A stretch of DNA of 64,000 bases, taken from NCBI RefSeq assembly GCF_902729355.1, contig NZ_CACVCC010000004.1, positions 1-64,000 of the forward strand. The letters are read 5' to 3'. Under the pieces are notes generated by a model. That model did no database searches. It was not told the DNA's origin and saw nothing but the letters and a program-made list of their open reading frames with translations. This DNA comes from Streptococcus sp. S784/96/1. GTDB taxonomy: Bacteria; Bacillota; Bacilli; Lactobacillales; Streptococcaceae. The translations under genes were made by a program, and so were the position numbers. Positions 22,483 through 58,095 of the stretch are shown piece by piece; position 1 is the first letter of the stretch; each line of letters begins with the position of its first letter.

Positions 22483-24231
22483 TTAAACTGATACTCTTTG
22501 TTGGATTTGATGCATTTCGGCATAACGTCCACCTAATGCCAAGAGTTCTGCATGTGTTCCACGTTCAATAATCTGACCTGCATCCAAGACAAGAATTTGG
22601 TCTGCATTTTGAATGGTCGAAAGCCGGTGGGCGATAATAAAGGTTGTCCGCCCTTCTTTCACCACATCCATGGCACGCTGAATGATTTCTTCTGTCTCGG
22701 TATCAATGTGCGAGGTCGCTTCATCTAAGATTAAAATTTTAGGATCTGTAATCAAAGTTCTAGCAAAAGCAATCAACTGACGCTCTCCTGATGAGAAGGC
22801 GGAGCCTTTTTCAACTACTGGTTCATGGATACCTTTATCTAATCGCTCCACCATGTCTTTGGCTCCAACCTTTTCAAGACTGGTTAAAATCGCTTCATCA
22901 GATAACCCTTTATTTTCCATAGACACATTACTAGCAATGGTTCCTGTGAAAAGGTACGGGTCCTGCAACACAATCCCCATATAGCTCCTGAGACTTTCAC
23001 GTGAAAAATGACGAATATCCTGTCCGTCAATCAGAACCTTTCCCTCTTGTGGGTCATAAAAACGATAGAGGAGATTCATGATAGACGATTTTCCTGAGCC
23101 TGTGTGTCCAACCAAGGCAACTGTCTCACCCGCCTTAGCATGAATGGTAATATCACGAAGCACCGCTTTTCCTTCCTCATAAGCAAAGGTTACATGGTCA
23201 AAGACGACATCACCATCTTCAACAAATAGCTGAGCGTCACCATCTGCTTCTTCTTGTTCTTCCAATAAATCAAGGACACGGCGTCCTGTCTCAAGTGAAC
23301 GATGGATGTTTGGTAGCTGTCTTACCAACATTCCCAACAAATCAAATAAGGTCGTGATATAGTTGATATAGACAAAGAGACGACCTGGGGTGACTCCTAG
23401 ATTTCCACCTAAAAATTGATAGCCAACCACTGTTAGAACACCTGAAATCACCATGTACTTGGCAAATTCTGTCAAAGTCCAAGAAGCGGTTGAATTGATT
23501 AAATGCATGCGATTATCTGCCGCCAACAATTTCCCAGAAGTCTTGTTAAAATCTTCCAAAACCTTTTCTTCTTGGTGGTAAAGTTGAATGAGACTCGCTC
23601 CGTTCATCGTTTCGTTGACTTGAGTATTGACCTCACTTCTGGCATCATAAAAGTCCTTCATCGGTTTATTAGTTGCTCGCCCGTACAACACCTGTAACCC
23701 ATAAAAAAGAGGAATTAAAATAAGCATGTAAAGACCGATTGTCACATCCAATCGAATTAAAATCACGTAAATGGCAATAATCCGAATGATATTAAGAAAA
23801 ATCATGGTCAACAGATTGCTATAGAATTGATTGCGTAGCGTCTCGGTATCATTGACAATCCGTGTCGCGATTTTCCCAGCAGGCTTGTCATCAAAATAAG
23901 AAATCGGTAGCCGCTGCATTTTATCAAAAGCTTGATTACGCAAGTAAGCCGTCACTAAAAAGGCACAGCGACTAAAAATGTATCGATCAAAATAGTAAAG
24001 AAATAACGACAGCACTGTCAGACCAGTATAGAGACTCATATACTTCATAAAAAGCGCTTGGTTGATAACCTTACCTTGGTCAAGAACTGTTAAACTACTA
24101 TCAATGACTTGTTGCAAAACTAGGGGTGATAATTGACTGACTGCGGTTGCTAGCAAAAGCATAACAACACCAAGTGTAAAAAGACCTTTCACAACAGTTA
24201 ATTGCTTCATTAAGTTTAATATTGTCTTCAT
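22483..24231 (-). CDS. Heterodimeric ABC exporter subunit with the canonical ATPase site
   Basis: About 582 aa from ATG 24231 (MKTILNLMKQLTVVKGLF), preceded by ACCTCC complement, i.e. GGAGGTGTAAA. Six membrane helices in the first 310 residues, then a nucleotide-binding domain: Walker A GHTGSGKSS, Q-loop GIVLQDPYLFTGTI, variant signature FSSGERQLIAFART, Walker B ILILDEATSHID with a catalytic Glu, H-loop IIAHRLST. The SSGER signature and Glu identify this as the LmrD/BmrD-like partner. Likely exports drugs or lipidic compounds; substrate not deducible. Its partner ends 10 bp upstream. Confidence 0.92.
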   Translation of the reverse strand: MKTILNLMKQLTVVKGLFTLGVVMLLLATAVSQLSPLVLQQVIDSSLTVLDQGKVINQALFMKYMSLYTGLTVLSLFLYYFDRYIFSRCAFLVTAYLRNQAFDKMQRLPISYFDDKPAGKIATRIVNDTETLRNQFYSNLLTMIFLNIIRIIAIYVILIRLDVTIGLYMLILIPLFYGLQVLYGRATNKPMKDFYDARSEVNTQVNETMNGASLIQLYHQEEKVLEDFNKTSGKLLAADNRMHLINSTASWTLTEFAKYMVISGVLTVVGYQFLGGNLGVTPGRLFVYINYITTLFDLLGMLVRQLPNIHRSLETGRRVLDLLEEQEEADGDAQLFVEDGDVVFDHVTFAYEEGKAVLRDITIHAKAGETVALVGHTGSGKSSIMNLLYRFYDPQEGKVLIDGQDIRHFSRESLRSYMGIVLQDPYLFTGTIASNVSMENKGLSDEAILTSLEKVGAKDMVERLDKGIHEPVVEKGSAFSSGERQLIAFARTLITDPKILILDEATSHIDTETEEIIQRAMDVVKEGRTTFIIAHRLSTIQNADQILVLDAGQIIERGTHAELLALGGRYAEMHQIQQRVSV

Positions 24232-24241
24232 TTTACACCTC

Positions 24242-25966
24242 CTATTCTGTTCCTTGTGCTTGCTGACGTTGGTATTGTTCAAAGTACCAGCCACCTAATT
24301 GAATAAGGTCATCAGGGGGCCCTTCTTCGACAATACGTCCATCATCCAAAACTAGAACCCAATCAGCATGTTGTATCGCAGATAGTCGGTGGGTAACGAT
24401 AATATTTGTCTTACCAGCACGCTCTTTCTGGATATTTTGAATAATTTTCTTCTCCGTTCTGGCATCAACCGCTGATAACGAATCGTCTAATATCAAGAGT
24501 TCTGGGTCCTTGATAAAAGCACGCGCTAGGGAAATCCGTTGTTTCTGACCACCTGATATAGACACCCCACGTTCACCAATAGTTGTGGCTAGACCATTTG
24601 ACATACGCTCCAAATCCTCTGTAAAGGCTGCGGTTTCAATAGCCTGATGAATAGTCATTTTGCCTGCATTTGTTTTTCCCATAGCAATGTTTTCACCAAC
24701 AGAACGCGAAAAGAGGATGTGTTCCTGTGGCACATAGCCAATCAGCCCCTCTACACTTTTACGAGCATACTCTGTGATTGCTCTGCCATTTAACCCAAAA
24801 CCACCAGAACCAACAGGGTATTGACGGAGAAACTGGCGCACCAGAGTCGTCTTACCTGACCCAGTCTTGCCGACAATACCAAGCGTTTGTCCTTTTTTTA
24901 GAGAAAAGCTGACGCTGTTAAGGCTAGCATGTGCTGCCTGAGGATAGGTAAAACTGTAATCTTTAAAGTGAGCCACTTCAAAGGCTTGCGCTTCTAACTC
25001 ACCATCCACTTCCATATCGTCACTGGTCTCAATCAAGCCCTGTAATTTCTCAAAAGAGGTCCGTCCCGTCTGGTAAACCAGAACAAGCTCTGAAAGCATA
25101 GAAATCGGTTCTGTCAATGAGACCGTATAAAGCTGCATCGCCAATACTTGACCAACCGTCATACTGCCGTCTGCGACAAATTGTGTTCCCAAAAGCAAGG
25201 TAATCAAAGTCGTTGCCCCAAACATGAGGGTATAGATAGGATTGTAAAGTGCCGTCACTCGCACCAAGCGATTTTCTCTGTCAACCAAATCCTGAGTTTT
25301 CTGACGAAAACGGGCAGCCTGCAAGTCCTTACGACTGTAAGCACGCATGACACGCACTCCTTCGATTGCCTCCACCACCTCATTACTGAGATTGGCCACA
25401 GCCTCACGATTATCATCAAAAAGGCTATCTGTTTTCCGACTGATAAAATAAATGACTGATGATAAGACAATGACTGGTAAGAGGGCAGCTAAAGTAATTT
25501 GCCAAGACATGGCAAACATGACTGGAATGATAAAAAGCAACATCCCTCCAGCATACAAGACCGTCATCAAACCATAGCCCACCAAATCCTGCAACATCTC
25601 CACATCAGACGAGAAGCGTGTCATCATATCACCTGAGCGAAATTTTTCATAAAATGGCGTCCGCATGGAAACCAATTTTTTAAAGGCATTTTGCTGCAAA
25701 TCAAACTTAAATCGACTGGCCTGCTGAAAGATTTTCAAACTCCAAAAGAAGGCTGTCACATAACTTACCACTGTGGCTCCAACCAAAATCCCGATATTCA
25801 ACCAAAGATTACTTTTTGTCAGACTCCCTGTCGTCATCAAATCAATCAATCGTTGAATAATCTGAGTCGGAACCACCAAACTGGCATCGTAAATAATCAA
25901 GACAAGACCTACTAAGACATATAGCCATTTGTGGTCTTTAATATATTTTCCAACTAATTTAAACAT
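24242..25966 (-). CDS. Heterodimeric ABC exporter subunit with the degenerate ATPase site
   Basis: 574 aa, RBS GGAGATAGG next to the ATG. Six membrane helices (about residues 15-310), then NBD: Walker A GKTGSGKTT, signature SISGGQKQRISLARA, Walker B LLILDDSLSAVD, where Asp replaces the catalytic Glu, and H-loop IVTHRLSA. This is the LmrC/BmrC-like half. The pair resembles LmrCD, BmrCD and PatAB multidrug exporters. Upstream lies a 19-codon leader ORF and a terminator (26088-26209), suggesting induction by translation inhibitors. Confidence 0.92.
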   Translation of the reverse strand: MFKLVGKYIKDHKWLYVLVGLVLIIYDASLVVPTQIIQRLIDLMTTGSLTKSNLWLNIGILVGATVVSYVTAFFWSLKIFQQASRFKFDLQQNAFKKLVSMRTPFYEKFRSGDMMTRFSSDVEMLQDLVGYGLMTVLYAGGMLLFIIPVMFAMSWQITLAALLPVIVLSSVIYFISRKTDSLFDDNREAVANLSNEVVEAIEGVRVMRAYSRKDLQAARFRQKTQDLVDRENRLVRVTALYNPIYTLMFGATTLITLLLGTQFVADGSMTVGQVLAMQLYTVSLTEPISMLSELVLVYQTGRTSFEKLQGLIETSDDMEVDGELEAQAFEVAHFKDYSFTYPQAAHASLNSVSFSLKKGQTLGIVGKTGSGKTTLVRQFLRQYPVGSGGFGLNGRAITEYARKSVEGLIGYVPQEHILFSRSVGENIAMGKTNAGKMTIHQAIETAAFTEDLERMSNGLATTIGERGVSISGGQKQRISLARAFIKDPELLILDDSLSAVDARTEKKIIQNIQKERAGKTNIIVTHRLSAIQHADWVLVLDDGRIVEEGPPDDLIQLGGWYFEQYQRQQAQGTE

Positions 25967-26087
25967 CCTATCTCCAAAAACATTTTTCTTTTTATAGACT
26001 AACTATTTTTCTAACCCAACAATTCTATATACTACATTTTCTCCACCTACATCATTTTTCTTTCTTGGTATTGGTTTCAGGACACAC

Positions 26088-26119
26088 AAAAAAACCTATG
26101 GACATACTCCTTCCATAGG
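26088..26119 (-). terminator. Intrinsic terminator between leader ORF and ABC exporter (attenuator)
   Basis: Minus strand CCTATGGA, nine-base loop AGGAGTATG, TCCATAGG, then seven T. It stands about 30 bp after the leader stop and 120 bp before the exporter start, with no gene end before it except the leader ORF. Confidence 0.85.
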
Positions 26120-26149
26120 CCTTTAGTCTTTTTTACAACAAAAAATAAA

Positions 26150-26209
26150 CTAACGAGACTGACTAGAAAGGAGAGATTTATTAACTTTTTGTGTGAATAC
26201 GTTGTTCAT
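26150..26209 (-). CDS. 19-aa leader peptide of the ABC exporter
   Basis: MNNVFTQKVNKSLLSSQSR. The ATG follows AAAGGAG at a good distance, within a short transcription unit: promoter at 26269-26241, terminator at 26119-26088. The RBS segment GAAAGGAGA (26226-26218) is perfectly complementary to TCTCCTTTC inside codons 12-15 (26174-26166). The same codons can instead pair with AAGGAG in the terminator (26112-26107) or, as CCTTTCTAGTC, with GACTAAAGG just before it. Mutually exclusive pairings plus a terminator are the hallmark of ribosome-mediated attenuation, as in bmrB-bmrCD of Bacillus. No similarity to known peptides was recognised. Confidence 0.6.
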   Translation of the reverse strand: MNNVFTQKVNKSLLSSQSR

Positions 26210-26240
26210 TGTTAAGTTCTCCTTTCATAAATATGTTATC

Positions 26241-26269
26241 AGTTTAGCATGAATTTATATTTTTGTAAA
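26241..26269 (-). promoter_or_regulatory. Promoter of leader peptide and ABC exporter
   Basis: Minus strand TTTACA (26269-26264), 17-bp spacer, TAAACT (26246-26241). No other promoter-like sequence was seen between the terminator and the exporter gene. Confidence 0.65.
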
Positions 26270-26325: not shown

Positions 26326-26475
26326 TTACCATTTTTTATCATTCCATTCTGCCCGACCCCAATCAAATTCATTGTGACGAACACCATCATCTTCCCAATC
26401 TGCAAATAACTCCTGTATTGTTGTTGGCTTTTGAATTTCAGGAGTTAAACTAATTGATTTATCTTTTACAGATAC
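26326..26475 (-). pseudogene. C-terminal remnant of an AbrB/MazE-type antitoxin
   Basis: An open stretch ends at the TAA 26328-26326 and reads in part SISLTPEIQKPTTIQELFADW, then EDDGVRHNEFDWGRAEWNDKKW. The ELFADW...DWG...W pattern is the toxin-binding tail of PemI/MazE-like antitoxins. The N-terminal DNA-binding half is missing: upstream the sequence runs directly into the IS982-type remnant. No toxin gene follows. Family assignment is from pattern recognition. Confidence 0.5.
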
Positions 26476-26955
26476 AGAAAACTTTTGGCTATCATGCGAC
26501 TAAAATCCATTATTACAGCTTGAAATTTTCAATTCTTGTCAGCGATAGTAGGTTTCCTATTGATTATGTTGTCACACCCGCATCTATTTATGATGGCGAT
26601 GTTGCTTTGGAGCTACTTGAAAATAGCCTCTTTCCAATCATTTATGGAGATAAAGGCAGAGTTAGCAGACTGCGGTATCCAGTTAATTTCTCAACTCAGA
26701 AAAAACATGATGGGTTATTCATGGCTAGAAAATTATAAAATCAGTAGATTGAGGAAACCATCAGAGACCGTATTTTCTAGTTTAGAGCAGTTTGGAATTG
26801 AATCTTTACGTTGCCGAAACATTCAAGCGCTCAAATTTAAGACAGAGGCAATATTACTTATCTATTCTCTTTTGCTCAAAAGCAGTCATGCTGATTTTGG
26901 GATCAGTCTAACTATTCCCTTATTAACTAGAACAACGGATATTAATAAGTTTTAG
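26470..26955 (+). pseudogene. IS982-family transposase remnant
   Basis: The C-terminal half of an IS982-type DDE transposase in two frames. Frame one: KTFGYHATKIHYYSLKFSIL, VSDSRFPIDYVVTPAS, ELLENSLFPIIYGDKG. After a shift near 26650-26690, frame two: QLISQLRKNMMGYS, SETVFSSLEQFGIESLRCRN. These match the YNATK, LVSDKG, VTPAS, LRQNM and IETTFSNL blocks of IS982. The N-terminal half and both ends are gone. Confidence 0.75.
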
Positions 26956-51359: not shown

Positions 51360-51525
51360 CGTCATTCTGGAGAAGATTTGATCTACCGAAGGAATTATAC
51401 TCTCAGGTGCCTTAGGGCAAGGACAGGATGACTGACGGACTTCTGGAGAGATTCTGCAAGACAGAACACCGAAGGGGCAAGGCGATTTTTCGCTCAATCT
51501 CTCAGGTAAAAGGACAGAAGGAAAA
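51360..51525 (+). ncRNA. Tandem glycine riboswitch
   Basis: Two consecutive aptamers. The first has TTCTGGAGAAGA, CTACCGAAGG, CTCTCAGGTGCC and GGACAGGATGAC; the second repeats TTCTGGAGAGAT, ACACCGAAGGGGCAAG, CTCTCAGGTAAAAGGACAGA. These are the conserved gcvT-type segments. Terminator-like hairpins follow at 51534-51572 and 51590-51619. It precedes an AGCS symporter; an equivalent riboswitch before a sodium:alanine symporter gene has been described in S. pyogenes. Confidence 0.95.
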
Positions 51526-51533
51526 TGATGCAC

Positions 51534-57059: not shown

Positions 57060-57161
57060 AGAATTCGTTGGTTTAACTCAAACCTGTTATGAGTTAAGTT
57101 AATGAGTCGCCATAACCAGGTTATCTGCCGAGACTAAACTCCGGGTAACCTGGTATTTTTT
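57060..57161 (+). ncRNA. Structured leader with terminator upstream of trmL
   Basis: The transcript starts with hairpin TTAACTCA-aacctgtta-TGAGTTAA (57073-57097). A terminator follows: ACCAGGTTA (57115-57123), loop, TAACCTGGT (57146-57154), then ATTTTTT. The first hairpin's loop plus closing base, AACCTGTTATG (57081-57091), is complementary to CATAACCAGGTT (57111-57122) with one bulged C, i.e. to the 5' arm of the terminator. That would allow an alternative, anti-terminating or pseudoknotted fold. It does not match riboswitch classes that I recognise, and no T-box consensus is present. Confidence 0.55.
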
Positions 57162-57820: not shown

Positions 57821-57828
57821 GAAATTGT

Positions 57829-58017
57829 CTTCAGGGCAGGGTGTGATTCCCGACCGGCGGTGACAAGCACAACTATTTTCTTTGAAACTAGTTAGCGATG
57901 AGTATATCGAGATAAGCTAATAACCTATGAGAGAAAAAGAGATTGTTTGAAGTCCGTGAGCGCAAGCTGATGTGGTGCGATTCCACAACCGACAGTAAAG
58001 TCTGGATGGGAGAAGAC
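57829..58017 (+). ncRNA. FMN riboswitch (RFN element)
   Basis: Diagnostic blocks in order: TCTTCAGGGCAGGGTGTGA, TTCCCGACCGGCGGTGACA, AAGTCCGTGAGCGC, GATGTGGTGCGATTCCACAA, CCGACAGTAAAGTCTGGATG, GGGAGAAGA. A variable arm lies between 57872 and 57950. Followed by the riboflavin transporter gene; a CCAA..TTTTTG / CAAAAA..TTGG pairing downstream may be the expression platform. Confidence 0.97.
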
Positions 58018-58095
58018 CAATGCTTTTTGTGCTACTTTTTGGGTGCAAAAATACTTGGAACTTCTTTCAAATTGTAAAATTTGGAGGAATTTTTT

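What the first reader, a model, noticed from the sequence alone, without database searches (positions are those of the whole stretch)
26088..26269. Candidate ribosome-mediated attenuator with a 19-aa leader peptide upstream of a heterodimeric ABC exporter
Seen directly: promoter TTTACA-17-TAAACT, RBS, ORF MNNVFTQKVNKSLLSSQSR, stop, and an 8-bp hairpin with seven T, all within 180 bp, followed by the exporter genes in the same direction. Three pairings compete for codons 12-16 of the leader: with its own RBS (9 perfect bp), with AAGGAG in the terminator loop and stem (8 bp including one G-U), and, as CCTTTCTAGTC, with GACTAAAGG next to the terminator. Known precedent: bmrB leader control of bmrCD in Bacillus and erm-type leaders. 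Inference: a ribosome stalled by an antibiotic early in the leader frees codons 12-16 for antitermination and exporter induction. I do not recognise this peptide.
Basis: partly seen in the sequence, partly recalled or inferred. Interest (0 to 1): 0.85.

Follow-up and report, generated by a model that had tools for sequence, protein, structure and literature searches.

The report
Leader-peptide attenuator before ABC drug exporter
In front of a bacterial drug-pump operon lies a tiny gene whose ribosome-binding site, coding region and terminator can pair with one another in competing ways, a conserved RNA switch that probably turns the pump on when an antibiotic parks a ribosome at the start of the tiny gene.

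Summary
In detail: every element is at the stated coordinates, on the minus strand. It is far from chance: the module precedes the related exporter in 85 of 89 Streptococcus upstream regions read, and in four genomes of another family of the order. Three RNA segments are kept: S1 (the leader's own Shine-Dalgarno), S2 (CUCCUUUC inside the leader ORF) and T (terminator 5' arm and loop). S1:S2 and S2:T exclude each other, and S2 and T fit their own partner best. The peptide is not conserved except LLS, which S2 spells; at least five loci read S2 in another frame. I add a likely stop-codon hairpin overlapping S2 and a U-rich tract behind it. Relatives with the leader include Tet(46) (NCBIfam cut-off met) and TrexAB (primers match), tetracycline exporters. 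Best explanation: a ribosome-gated transcription attenuator, nearly independent of peptide sequence; a ribosome parked at the start masks S1 and frees S2 to pre-empt the terminator. Tetracyclines are the likeliest inducers, untested. Against: at equilibrium the terminator mostly wins; a longer window fragment folds into the antiterminator without any ribosome; the suis group breaks the S2-to-stop spacing. New variant of a known kind.

The parts
26241..26269 (-). promoter TTTACA-17-TAAACT with extended -10 TG
   Evidence: A promoter-like pair of hexamers (score >= 9) lies within 60 nt upstream of the SD in 33 of 35 clusters, against 22% of 660 control windows.
26219..26226 (-). S1: leader Shine-Dalgarno GAAAGGAG, also the anti-antiterminator strand
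   Evidence: S1:S2 pairs kept in 27 of 27 aligned leaders in an unguided RNAalifold
26150..26209 (-). 19-codon leader ORF MNNVFTQKVNKSLLSSQSR plus TAG stop
   Evidence: S2 in the LLS frame in 31 of 35 clusters; synonymous changes enriched within clusters (46 against 26.0 expected of 113, a crude count)
26166..26173 (-). S2: CTCCTTTC, pairs with S1 or with T
26150..26166 (-). stop-codon hairpin CUAGU-7 nt-GUUAG (two G-U pairs in the window, Watson-Crick in many relatives)
26140..26149 (-). T-rich tract after the stop (TTTATTTTTT, fits TTNTTT); possible RNA polymerase pause signal
   Evidence: function inferred from the vmlR precedent
26107..26114 (-). T: GGAAGGAG in the terminator 5' arm and loop, antiterminator partner of S2
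   Evidence: S2:T duplex over 35 clusters: own -11.87, permuted -10.29 kcal/mol, 0 of 20000 permutations as good (before one row was corrected)
26088..26119 (-). intrinsic terminator, 8-bp stem, 9-nt loop, seven T
   Evidence: 10 terminator pairs with changes on both sides among 27 leaders
24242..25966 (-). exporter half A (574 aa), Tet(46)A/TrexA-like
   Evidence: NF000474 733.6 bits, below its cut-off of 1250
22483..24294 (-). exporter half B; the profile match starts at residue 22, so the true start is probably further in
   Evidence: NF000475 789.0 bits, below its cut-off of 1250

Best explanation
A ribosome-gated transcription attenuator that reads where the first ribosome sits, not what peptide it makes. 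No ribosome: S2 pairs with S1 as soon as it is made, the terminator forms, OFF. Ribosome that finishes the leader: at the stop codon it covers S2, the terminator forms, OFF. Ribosome parked at or just after the start codon: it covers S1, S2 is free when the terminator's 5' arm and loop emerge, S2:T forms, the terminator is pre-empted and the exporter is transcribed, ON. The stop-codon hairpin plus U-rich tract probably pauses RNA polymerase so that the ribosome can catch up. The likeliest inducers are tetracyclines, the drugs that the two characterised members of the exporter family remove. Shown here: conservation, fit of S2 to its own T, frame, structure counts, constrained folding. Taken from papers: the substrate of TrexAB and the start-codon stalling by tetracycline (in E. 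coli); the substrate of Tet(46) from its NCBIfam name and from mentions in papers read. Inferred: readthrough, inducer, pausing. About 0.75 for the attenuator itself; about 0.5 for tetracycline as the main natural inducer.
For: The module was found in 85 of 89 upstream regions of the exporter read in Streptococcus, and by the model just upstream of an exporter half in four genomes of another family of the order. S1:S2 is kept in 27 of 27 aligned leaders by unguided RNAalifold; the terminator has 10 pairs with changes on both sides. S2:T energies are better for own partners than for permuted ones (0 of 20000). On transcripts ending before the terminator's 3' arm, some part of S2 pairs with T (P > 0.5) in 31 of 31 clusters with a ribosome masking the start and in 2 of 31 with one at the stop; control with the mean pairing of the S2 8-mer above 0.4: own 31 of 31, swapped T 79% of 310, shuffled T 55% of 310. 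S2-end-to-stop is 13 nt in 26 of 35 clusters while the leader varies from 19 to 34 aa. Tet(46) cut-offs are met by a relative with the leader. TrexAB primers match L186, whose leader is intact, and deleting trexAB lowers the tetracycline MIC 16-32-fold (PMC12256430). [quoted passage not shown] coli (PMC12121999, passages).
Against: At equilibrium on the full leader the terminator wins in 28 of 31 clusters even with S1 masked (27 of 31 with 12 more downstream bases), so antitermination must be kinetic in most species. The window itself is an exception in the other direction: on the longer fragment the ribosome-free RNA already prefers an antiterminator-like fold (MFE and centroid; terminator probability 0.15, S2:T 0.82), the only one of 31 to do so. 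On truncated transcripts S2:T exceeds 0.5 in 20 of 31 clusters without a ribosome and in 22 of 31 with one at codon 6, so the free state is not cleanly OFF in silico; the model ignores that a ribosome would sit in the S1:S2 loop. Nine of 35 clusters do not have the 13-nt S2-to-stop spacing; in the four of the suis group it is 10, 19, 22 or 28 nt. TTNTTT is present in 15 of 35 clusters only. bmrCD responded to 50S but not 30S drugs. No expression or term-seq data; the transcription start is not mapped.
Confidence: 0.75

Rival explanations
1. A plain constitutive terminator attenuator, as upstream of patA in S. pneumoniae: the hairpin lowers expression and no ribosome is sensed; mutations in it give overexpression.
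For: PatAB overexpression by terminator mutations is proven (PMC4319486). The terminator usually wins at equilibrium here.
Against: It does not explain a conserved SD, start codon, frame, S2-to-stop spacing and the fit of S2 to its own T. The wild-type patA upstream oligo printed in that paper has no room for such an ORF (my reading).
Confidence: 0.13
2. An attenuator that senses amino acid supply (leucine or serine) through the LLS codons.
For: LLS lies in-frame in most leaders.
Against: LLS is spelled by the RNA segment S2. L099, L108, L154, L179 and L183 read S2 in another frame as TPL or TPF. The gene controlled is a drug exporter, not a biosynthetic gene.
Confidence: 0.03
3. An antibiotic-specific arrest peptide of the erm or cat type, in which nascent-chain sequence decides where the ribosome stops.
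For: Synonymous changes are enriched within clusters, so the peptide is not wholly free; MN followed by N, K or T starts 24 of 35 cluster peptides.
Against: Mean pairwise identity of residues 4-12 between clusters is 0.098. Known arrest motifs were not searched for systematically; none was noticed (recalled motifs).
Confidence: 0.09

Closest known systems
bmrB leader of bmrCD, Bacillus subtilis (PMC4191407, passages seen)
   Same: Short ORF, terminator, predicted anti- and anti-anti-terminator, before a heterodimeric ABC exporter; start-site mutations abolish lincomycin induction.
   Different: There the terminator lies inside the bmrB coding region and 50S drugs induce; here it follows the stop codon. 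Homology of the leaders was not tested; whether a B. subtilis genome was among the 299 class-level genomes is unknown.
vmlR leader, Bacillus subtilis (PMC9226507, abstract and passages seen)
   Same: uORF with SD near a 5' anti-antiterminator, pause hairpin with NusG TTNTTT motif, terminator; drugs that stall initiating ribosomes induce.
   Different: ABC-F protein, tripeptide uORF, SD in a single-stranded region before SL-1; here the SD itself is the anti-antiterminator strand.
PatAB attenuator, Streptococcus pneumoniae (PMC4319486, abstract, passages, Methods and one Results section seen)
   Same: Terminator upstream of a heterodimeric ABC exporter, with predicted anti- and anti-anti-terminator.
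   Different: Terminator close to the -10 as I read it; only an ATG AAA AGG AGC TGA frame in the printed oligo (my reading).
toiL uORF of topAI, Escherichia coli (PMC12121999, passages seen)
   Same: A uORF that senses tetracycline through a ribosome stalled at its start codon.
   Different: Controls a toxin-antitoxin operon; Gram-negative; toiL itself pairs with the downstream ribosome-binding site.
TrexAB, Streptococcus dysgalactiae (PMC12256430, parts 1-3 of 5 seen), and Tet(46)
   Same: Exporter family downstream of this leader; tetracycline substrate.
   Different: The TrexAB main text has no 'leader peptide', 'terminator', 'promoter' or 'induc'; 'attenuat' only in a reference title. The Tet(46) paper was not seen.

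Membership tests
Ribosome-mediated transcription attenuators (leader-peptide class) | Translatable short ORF between promoter and terminator | tested here: met
   SD, start, open frame and stop in 35 clusters by the search criterion, S2 in frame 0 in 31 of 35; synonymous excess within clusters
Ribosome-mediated transcription attenuators (leader-peptide class) | Intrinsic terminator before the gene | tested here: met
   A hairpin plus T run found after the ORF in all 84 modules; in the Tet(46)-like clade (22 loci) the nearer hairpin was substituted
Ribosome-mediated transcription attenuators (leader-peptide class) | Mutually exclusive antiterminator and anti-antiterminator | tested here: met
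   S1:S2 and S2:T share S2; fit to own partner and constrained folding; but equilibrium mostly favours the terminator
Ribosome-mediated transcription attenuators (leader-peptide class) | Readthrough depends on ribosome position | not testable with these tools
   needs reporter or term-seq data
bmrB-type leader | Terminator within the leader coding sequence | tested here: not met
   terminator starts at least 16 nt after the leader stop in the modules listed, and after the stop in the Tet(46)-like clade
Tet(46) exporter (NF000474 / NF000475) | Score at or above the curated cut-off of 1250 bits | tested here: not met
   window proteins 733.6 and 789.0 bits; relative L185 with the leader 1320.7 and 1349.7, met
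NusG-dependent pause as in vmlR | TTNTTT after a pause hairpin | tested here: inconclusive
   15 of 35 clusters have TTNTTT within 14 nt after the stop, against 5.7% of upstream and 6.8% of within-ORF control windows; pausing itself not testable
Any Rfam 15 family | Match at gathering score | tested here: not met
   none over the leader (best 19.1 bits, on the other strand, against a gathering score of 40)

The most novel reading that the evidence does not exclude
A dedicated start-codon-occupancy sensor for tetracyclines, ancient in Lactobacillales: the leader's Shine-Dalgarno is itself the anti-antiterminator, so the ribosome competes with S2 for S1 and any drug that freezes the initiating ribosome flips the switch whatever the peptide. 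A hairpin that includes the stop codon and overlaps S2 may couple release of the ribosome to polymerase pausing. It would make the chromosomal Tet(46)/TrexAB exporters inducible rather than constitutive.
Probability: 0.45. Interest if true: 0.75.

Novelty: new variant of a known kind. Interest (0 to 1): 0.62.

Why it matters
TrexAB gives low-grade tetracycline resistance whose MIC distribution is cut by the clinical breakpoint in S. dysgalactiae (PMC12256430). An inducible switch could explain variable MICs and would matter for susceptibility testing. It would also be an antibiotic-sensing leader whose peptide sequence is nearly free, separating ribosome position from nascent-chain sequence, and it comes with natural variants for testing each pairing.

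Tried and rejected
PatAB homology: rejected as the same leader, because the patA oligo, as I read it, shows a terminator near the -10 without such an ORF. SatAB of S. suis: a different operon with a MarR gene, satR. Leucine attenuation: rejected on frame evidence. Rfam: nothing over the leader.

The pattern AAAGGAGN{40,70}CTCCTTTC hit 137 of 247 genomes, but it is not specific: the listing (cut short) shows many other places, and the pattern can match itself on the other strand. The covariance model was used instead.

Hits outside the order (G830, G653): I read G830 by eye as a coding region with a similar terminator; G653 was not inspected. G424 and G508 had only short frames downstream (longest 85 and 73 codons) and were taken as chance. 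G259, G305, G430 and G489 were not inspected. Genus hits with E between 0.001 and 0.01: 13 of 101. Of these G103 and G231 were read and lie upstream of a leuA-like gene (named from recall of the protein sequence); G021 was read and is a true module (L179); G026 was fetched (L189) but not analysed; nine were not inspected.

Errors in my own work: one search failed on a missing file and was redone. L037 was read in the wrong orientation and corrected. In one search the S2 of L028 was placed at a later CTCC; this stood (one of 35 rows) and was corrected; one search repeats the statistic with the right row. L055 was missed by the scripts and added by hand. In the Tet(46)-like clade the terminator finder took a second hairpin; the first was substituted.

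Rows dropped before counts: of 94 exporter hits (93 genomes), five upstream regions were not fetched (G006 at a contig end, G015 partial, and three hits of 36-37% identity: the second of G121, G040, G008). Clusters with more than 40 nt between stop and terminator (4 of 35, 16 loci, which I call the suis group because L063 is the S. suis locus L006) were left out of the position table, of the alignment, of the folding and of the third-pairing and long-fragment tests. L086, L099, L108 and L110 were also left out of that alignment (A2), so 27 of 35 clusters were aligned. Alignment A1 holds the 26 clusters with 13-nt spacing only.

Literature: 10 library searches. No listed title or abstract start was about this leader; the listings are capped. 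The Tet(46) paper was not among those listed and was not seen.

Full report
WHAT IS THERE. On the minus strand, 26269 to 26088, lie a promoter, a strong Shine-Dalgarno, a 19-codon ORF with a TAG stop, and an 8-bp hairpin with seven T. An ABC exporter of two half-genes follows. The genome is close to Streptococcus hillyeri: the exporter protein is 97% identical to that of L004. The exporter's best NCBIfam models are Tet(46) A and B, at 733.6 and 789.0 bits, below the curated cut-off of 1250.

CONSERVATION. Of 247 genus genomes (drawn from a larger group), 93 hold the exporter at E <= 1e-120, in 94 places. I read the upstream region of 89 of the 94. A leader module was found in 85 of 89 (84 by script, L055 added by hand). 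Of the other four, the covariance model places a module about 0.8 kb upstream of the exporter in G014, about 0.55 kb upstream in G021, and on a different contig in G229 (G014 and G021 read; the G229 region fetched was not analysed). G026 has only a weak match at E 0.0024. All seven named Streptococcus loci match the model (L002-L008, E 1.9e-18 to 8.3e-5).

The model R1 finds 101 of 244 genus genomes at E <= 0.01, 88 of them below 0.001, one place per genome except G214. In the order it finds 44 of 395, ten of them outside the genus. G271, G478, G287 and G403, all of one other family, carry the leader directly upstream of an exporter half (G287 and G403 judged by the look of the protein only). 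For G271 and G478 the Tet(46)A profile scores 659.3 and 535.8 bits. Of the other six, two were read and set aside and four were not read. In the class, 14 of 299 match, of which two lie outside the order and are not established.

WHAT IS CONSTRAINED. The 85 modules form 35 clusters at 80% identity. In them:
- S1 (GAAAGGAG) and S2 (CUCCUUUC) pair in 27 of 27 aligned leaders in an unguided RNAalifold. These eight pairs hardly vary, so they give almost no covariation; the terminator has 10 pairs with changes on both sides.
- S2 and the terminator 5' arm and loop (T) fit their own partner better than others: mean duplex -11.87 kcal/mol against -10.29 (sd 0.30) for 20000 permutations of partners, none as good. 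S1:S2 gives -14.17 against -13.55 (75 of 20000 as good). Shuffled S2 gives -5.4 with S1 and -7.8 with T. The clusters are related, so these are not strict probabilities.
- By eye, S2 and T change together: in the suis group ACUCC faces GGAGU; in the Tet(46)-like clade CUUCUCCA faces UGGAGGAG; in L068 AAUAG-CUCC faces GGAG-CUAUU (sequences).
- The ORF: 31 of 35 clusters have S2 in frame 0 (LLS) although the start-to-S2 distance varies from 36 to 81 nt. S2-end to stop is 13 nt in 26 of 35. Leader length is 19 to 34 aa. Within clusters 46 synonymous and 67 non-synonymous changes were counted against 26.0 synonymous expected (a crude count). Between clusters residues 4-12 are hardly alike (0.098).
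- L099, L108, L154, L179 and L183 read S2 as TPL or TPF. In four of these five the stop follows S2 by 12 nt (L099, L108; L154, L183 by my count); in L179 it lies further away. So the RNA, not the peptide, is kept.
- The promoter: 33 of 35 clusters score >= 9, against 22% of 660 control windows.

STOP-CODON HAIRPIN (new here). In the 26 clusters with 13-nt spacing, the last C of S2 and the next four bases can pair with the stop codon and the two bases before it: CUAA[C/G], 7-nt loop, [G/C]UUAG. 108 of 130 cells pair, against 79.7 (sd 4.0) after shuffling the 12 bases before the stop, 0 of 2000 as high. The tool's count gives 83.1% paired, 1 of 500 shuffles as high; covariation score 4 of 500; further pair types 434 of 500, so no excess there; sliding the partner by 1-3 columns gives 11 to 51% paired. 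The fifth pair is C-G in 7 and G-C in 7, but unpaired in 11. Covariation therefore rests on one pair. Stops are TAG in 28 of 35. A U-rich tract follows: T is 65 to 84% at seven of the first eight positions among 31 clusters, and TTNTTT lies within 14 nt in 15 of 35 against 5.7% and 6.8% in two sets of control windows. In vmlR of B. subtilis such a motif after a hairpin is a NusG-dependent pause (PMC9226507, passages). Pausing here is inference.

HOW IT WORKS. I folded each leader with a ribosome mask. On transcripts that end just before the terminator's 3' arm, part of S2 pairs with T (P > 0.5) in 31 of 31 clusters when the ribosome covers the start and in 2 of 31 when it sits at the stop; without a ribosome in 20 of 31, and with one at codon 6 in 22 of 31. 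As a control, with the mean pairing of the S2 8-mer above 0.4 as criterion: own T 31 of 31, T of another cluster 79% of 310, shuffled T 55% of 310. On full transcripts at equilibrium the terminator wins in 28 of 31 even with S1 masked; the exceptions are the window leader (terminator probability 0.02), L047 and L110. With 12 more downstream bases it wins in 27 of 31. Antitermination must therefore be won in time, before the 3' arm is made, in most species.

The window leader is special in one respect that speaks against a clean OFF state. On a longer fragment (26080-26232) the ribosome-free minimum-energy and centroid folds already pair S2 with T, and codons of the leader with the T run and the GTGTG behind it; one search gives terminator 0.15 and S2:T 0.82 there, the only one of 31 clusters below 0.5. 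On the shorter transcript the values are 0.87 and 0.00. So in the window, too, timing must decide.

WHICH SIGNAL. L185, which carries the leader of the Tet(46)-like clade, meets the NCBIfam cut-offs for Tet(46) A and B (1320.7 and 1349.7 against 1250). Two whole primers and the 23-base gene part of a third, printed for trexAB of S. dysgalactiae, match L186 exactly, and that genome's leader is intact (MNNSTKRMNFLENTLLSSRKS, my translation of L055). Deleting trexAB lowers the MIC of tetracycline 16- to 32-fold and of tigecycline 4-fold; the authors report no difference for erythromycin, clindamycin, gentamicin and ciprofloxacin (PMC12256430, parts 1-3 of 5). [quoted passage not shown] coli and induces topAI through a uORF in this way (PMC12121999, passages). 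A ribosome at the start codon is the state that masks S1 and frees S2. The link is an inference; I saw no induction data for this family.

WHAT ELSE SPEAKS AGAINST. The four clusters of the suis group have S2-to-stop of 22, 10, 19 and 28 nt and 42 to 127 nt between stop and terminator. No transcript data exist here.

WHAT IS KNOWN. PatAB of S. pneumoniae has a proven attenuating terminator with predicted anti- and anti-anti-terminator (PMC4319486: abstract, passages, Methods and one Results section); its printed leader lacks this layout as I read it. bmrB and vmlR are the closest mechanisms. Ten library searches listed no paper whose title or abstract start was about this leader; many papers are not held, and the Tet(46) paper was not seen.

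VERDICT. A real, widely conserved leader-peptide attenuator of a known general kind, in a new variant: the leader's own Shine-Dalgarno is the anti-antiterminator strand and the peptide sequence is nearly free.

Noticed in passing
window 26454-26955, + strand: Pieces of a broken DDE transposase (Pfam DDE_Tnp_1; one piece above, one below its cut-off) lie upstream of the leader promoter.
   Followed up: partly
window 51433-51527, 57062-57160, 57823-58021: Glycine riboswitch, 23S-methyl RNA motif and FMN riboswitch by Rfam at gathering scores.
   Followed up: no
L178 161-320 and L182 2060-2218: The model also scores a leader MKTAKFNQFALLLRYS(D/G) with a terminator before a leuA-like gene (gene named from recall), probably an ordinary leucine attenuator.
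   Followed up: partly
Tet(46)-like clade, for example L086: A second terminator-like hairpin lies about 90 nt after the leader stop, beyond the first.
   Followed up: no
suis group, for example L034 and L048: 42 to 127 nt lie between leader stop and terminator, with a GGTCTATTTTTGTGGAC-like element before the terminator in loci seen; a TTTTTGTGGAC element recurs in other clades.
   Followed up: no
L129 1500-2700 (G225) and L181 (G226): Leader intact while the exporter A gene looks frameshifted (G225) or its longest downstream frame is short (G226); neither was among the protein hits at the threshold used.
   Followed up: partly
window 26185-26195 with 26083-26093, - strand: Leader codons (CACACAAAAAG) can pair with the terminator T run and the GTGTG behind it in the window's minimum-energy fold; GTGTG or a near form follows the T run in many relatives.
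   Followed up: no
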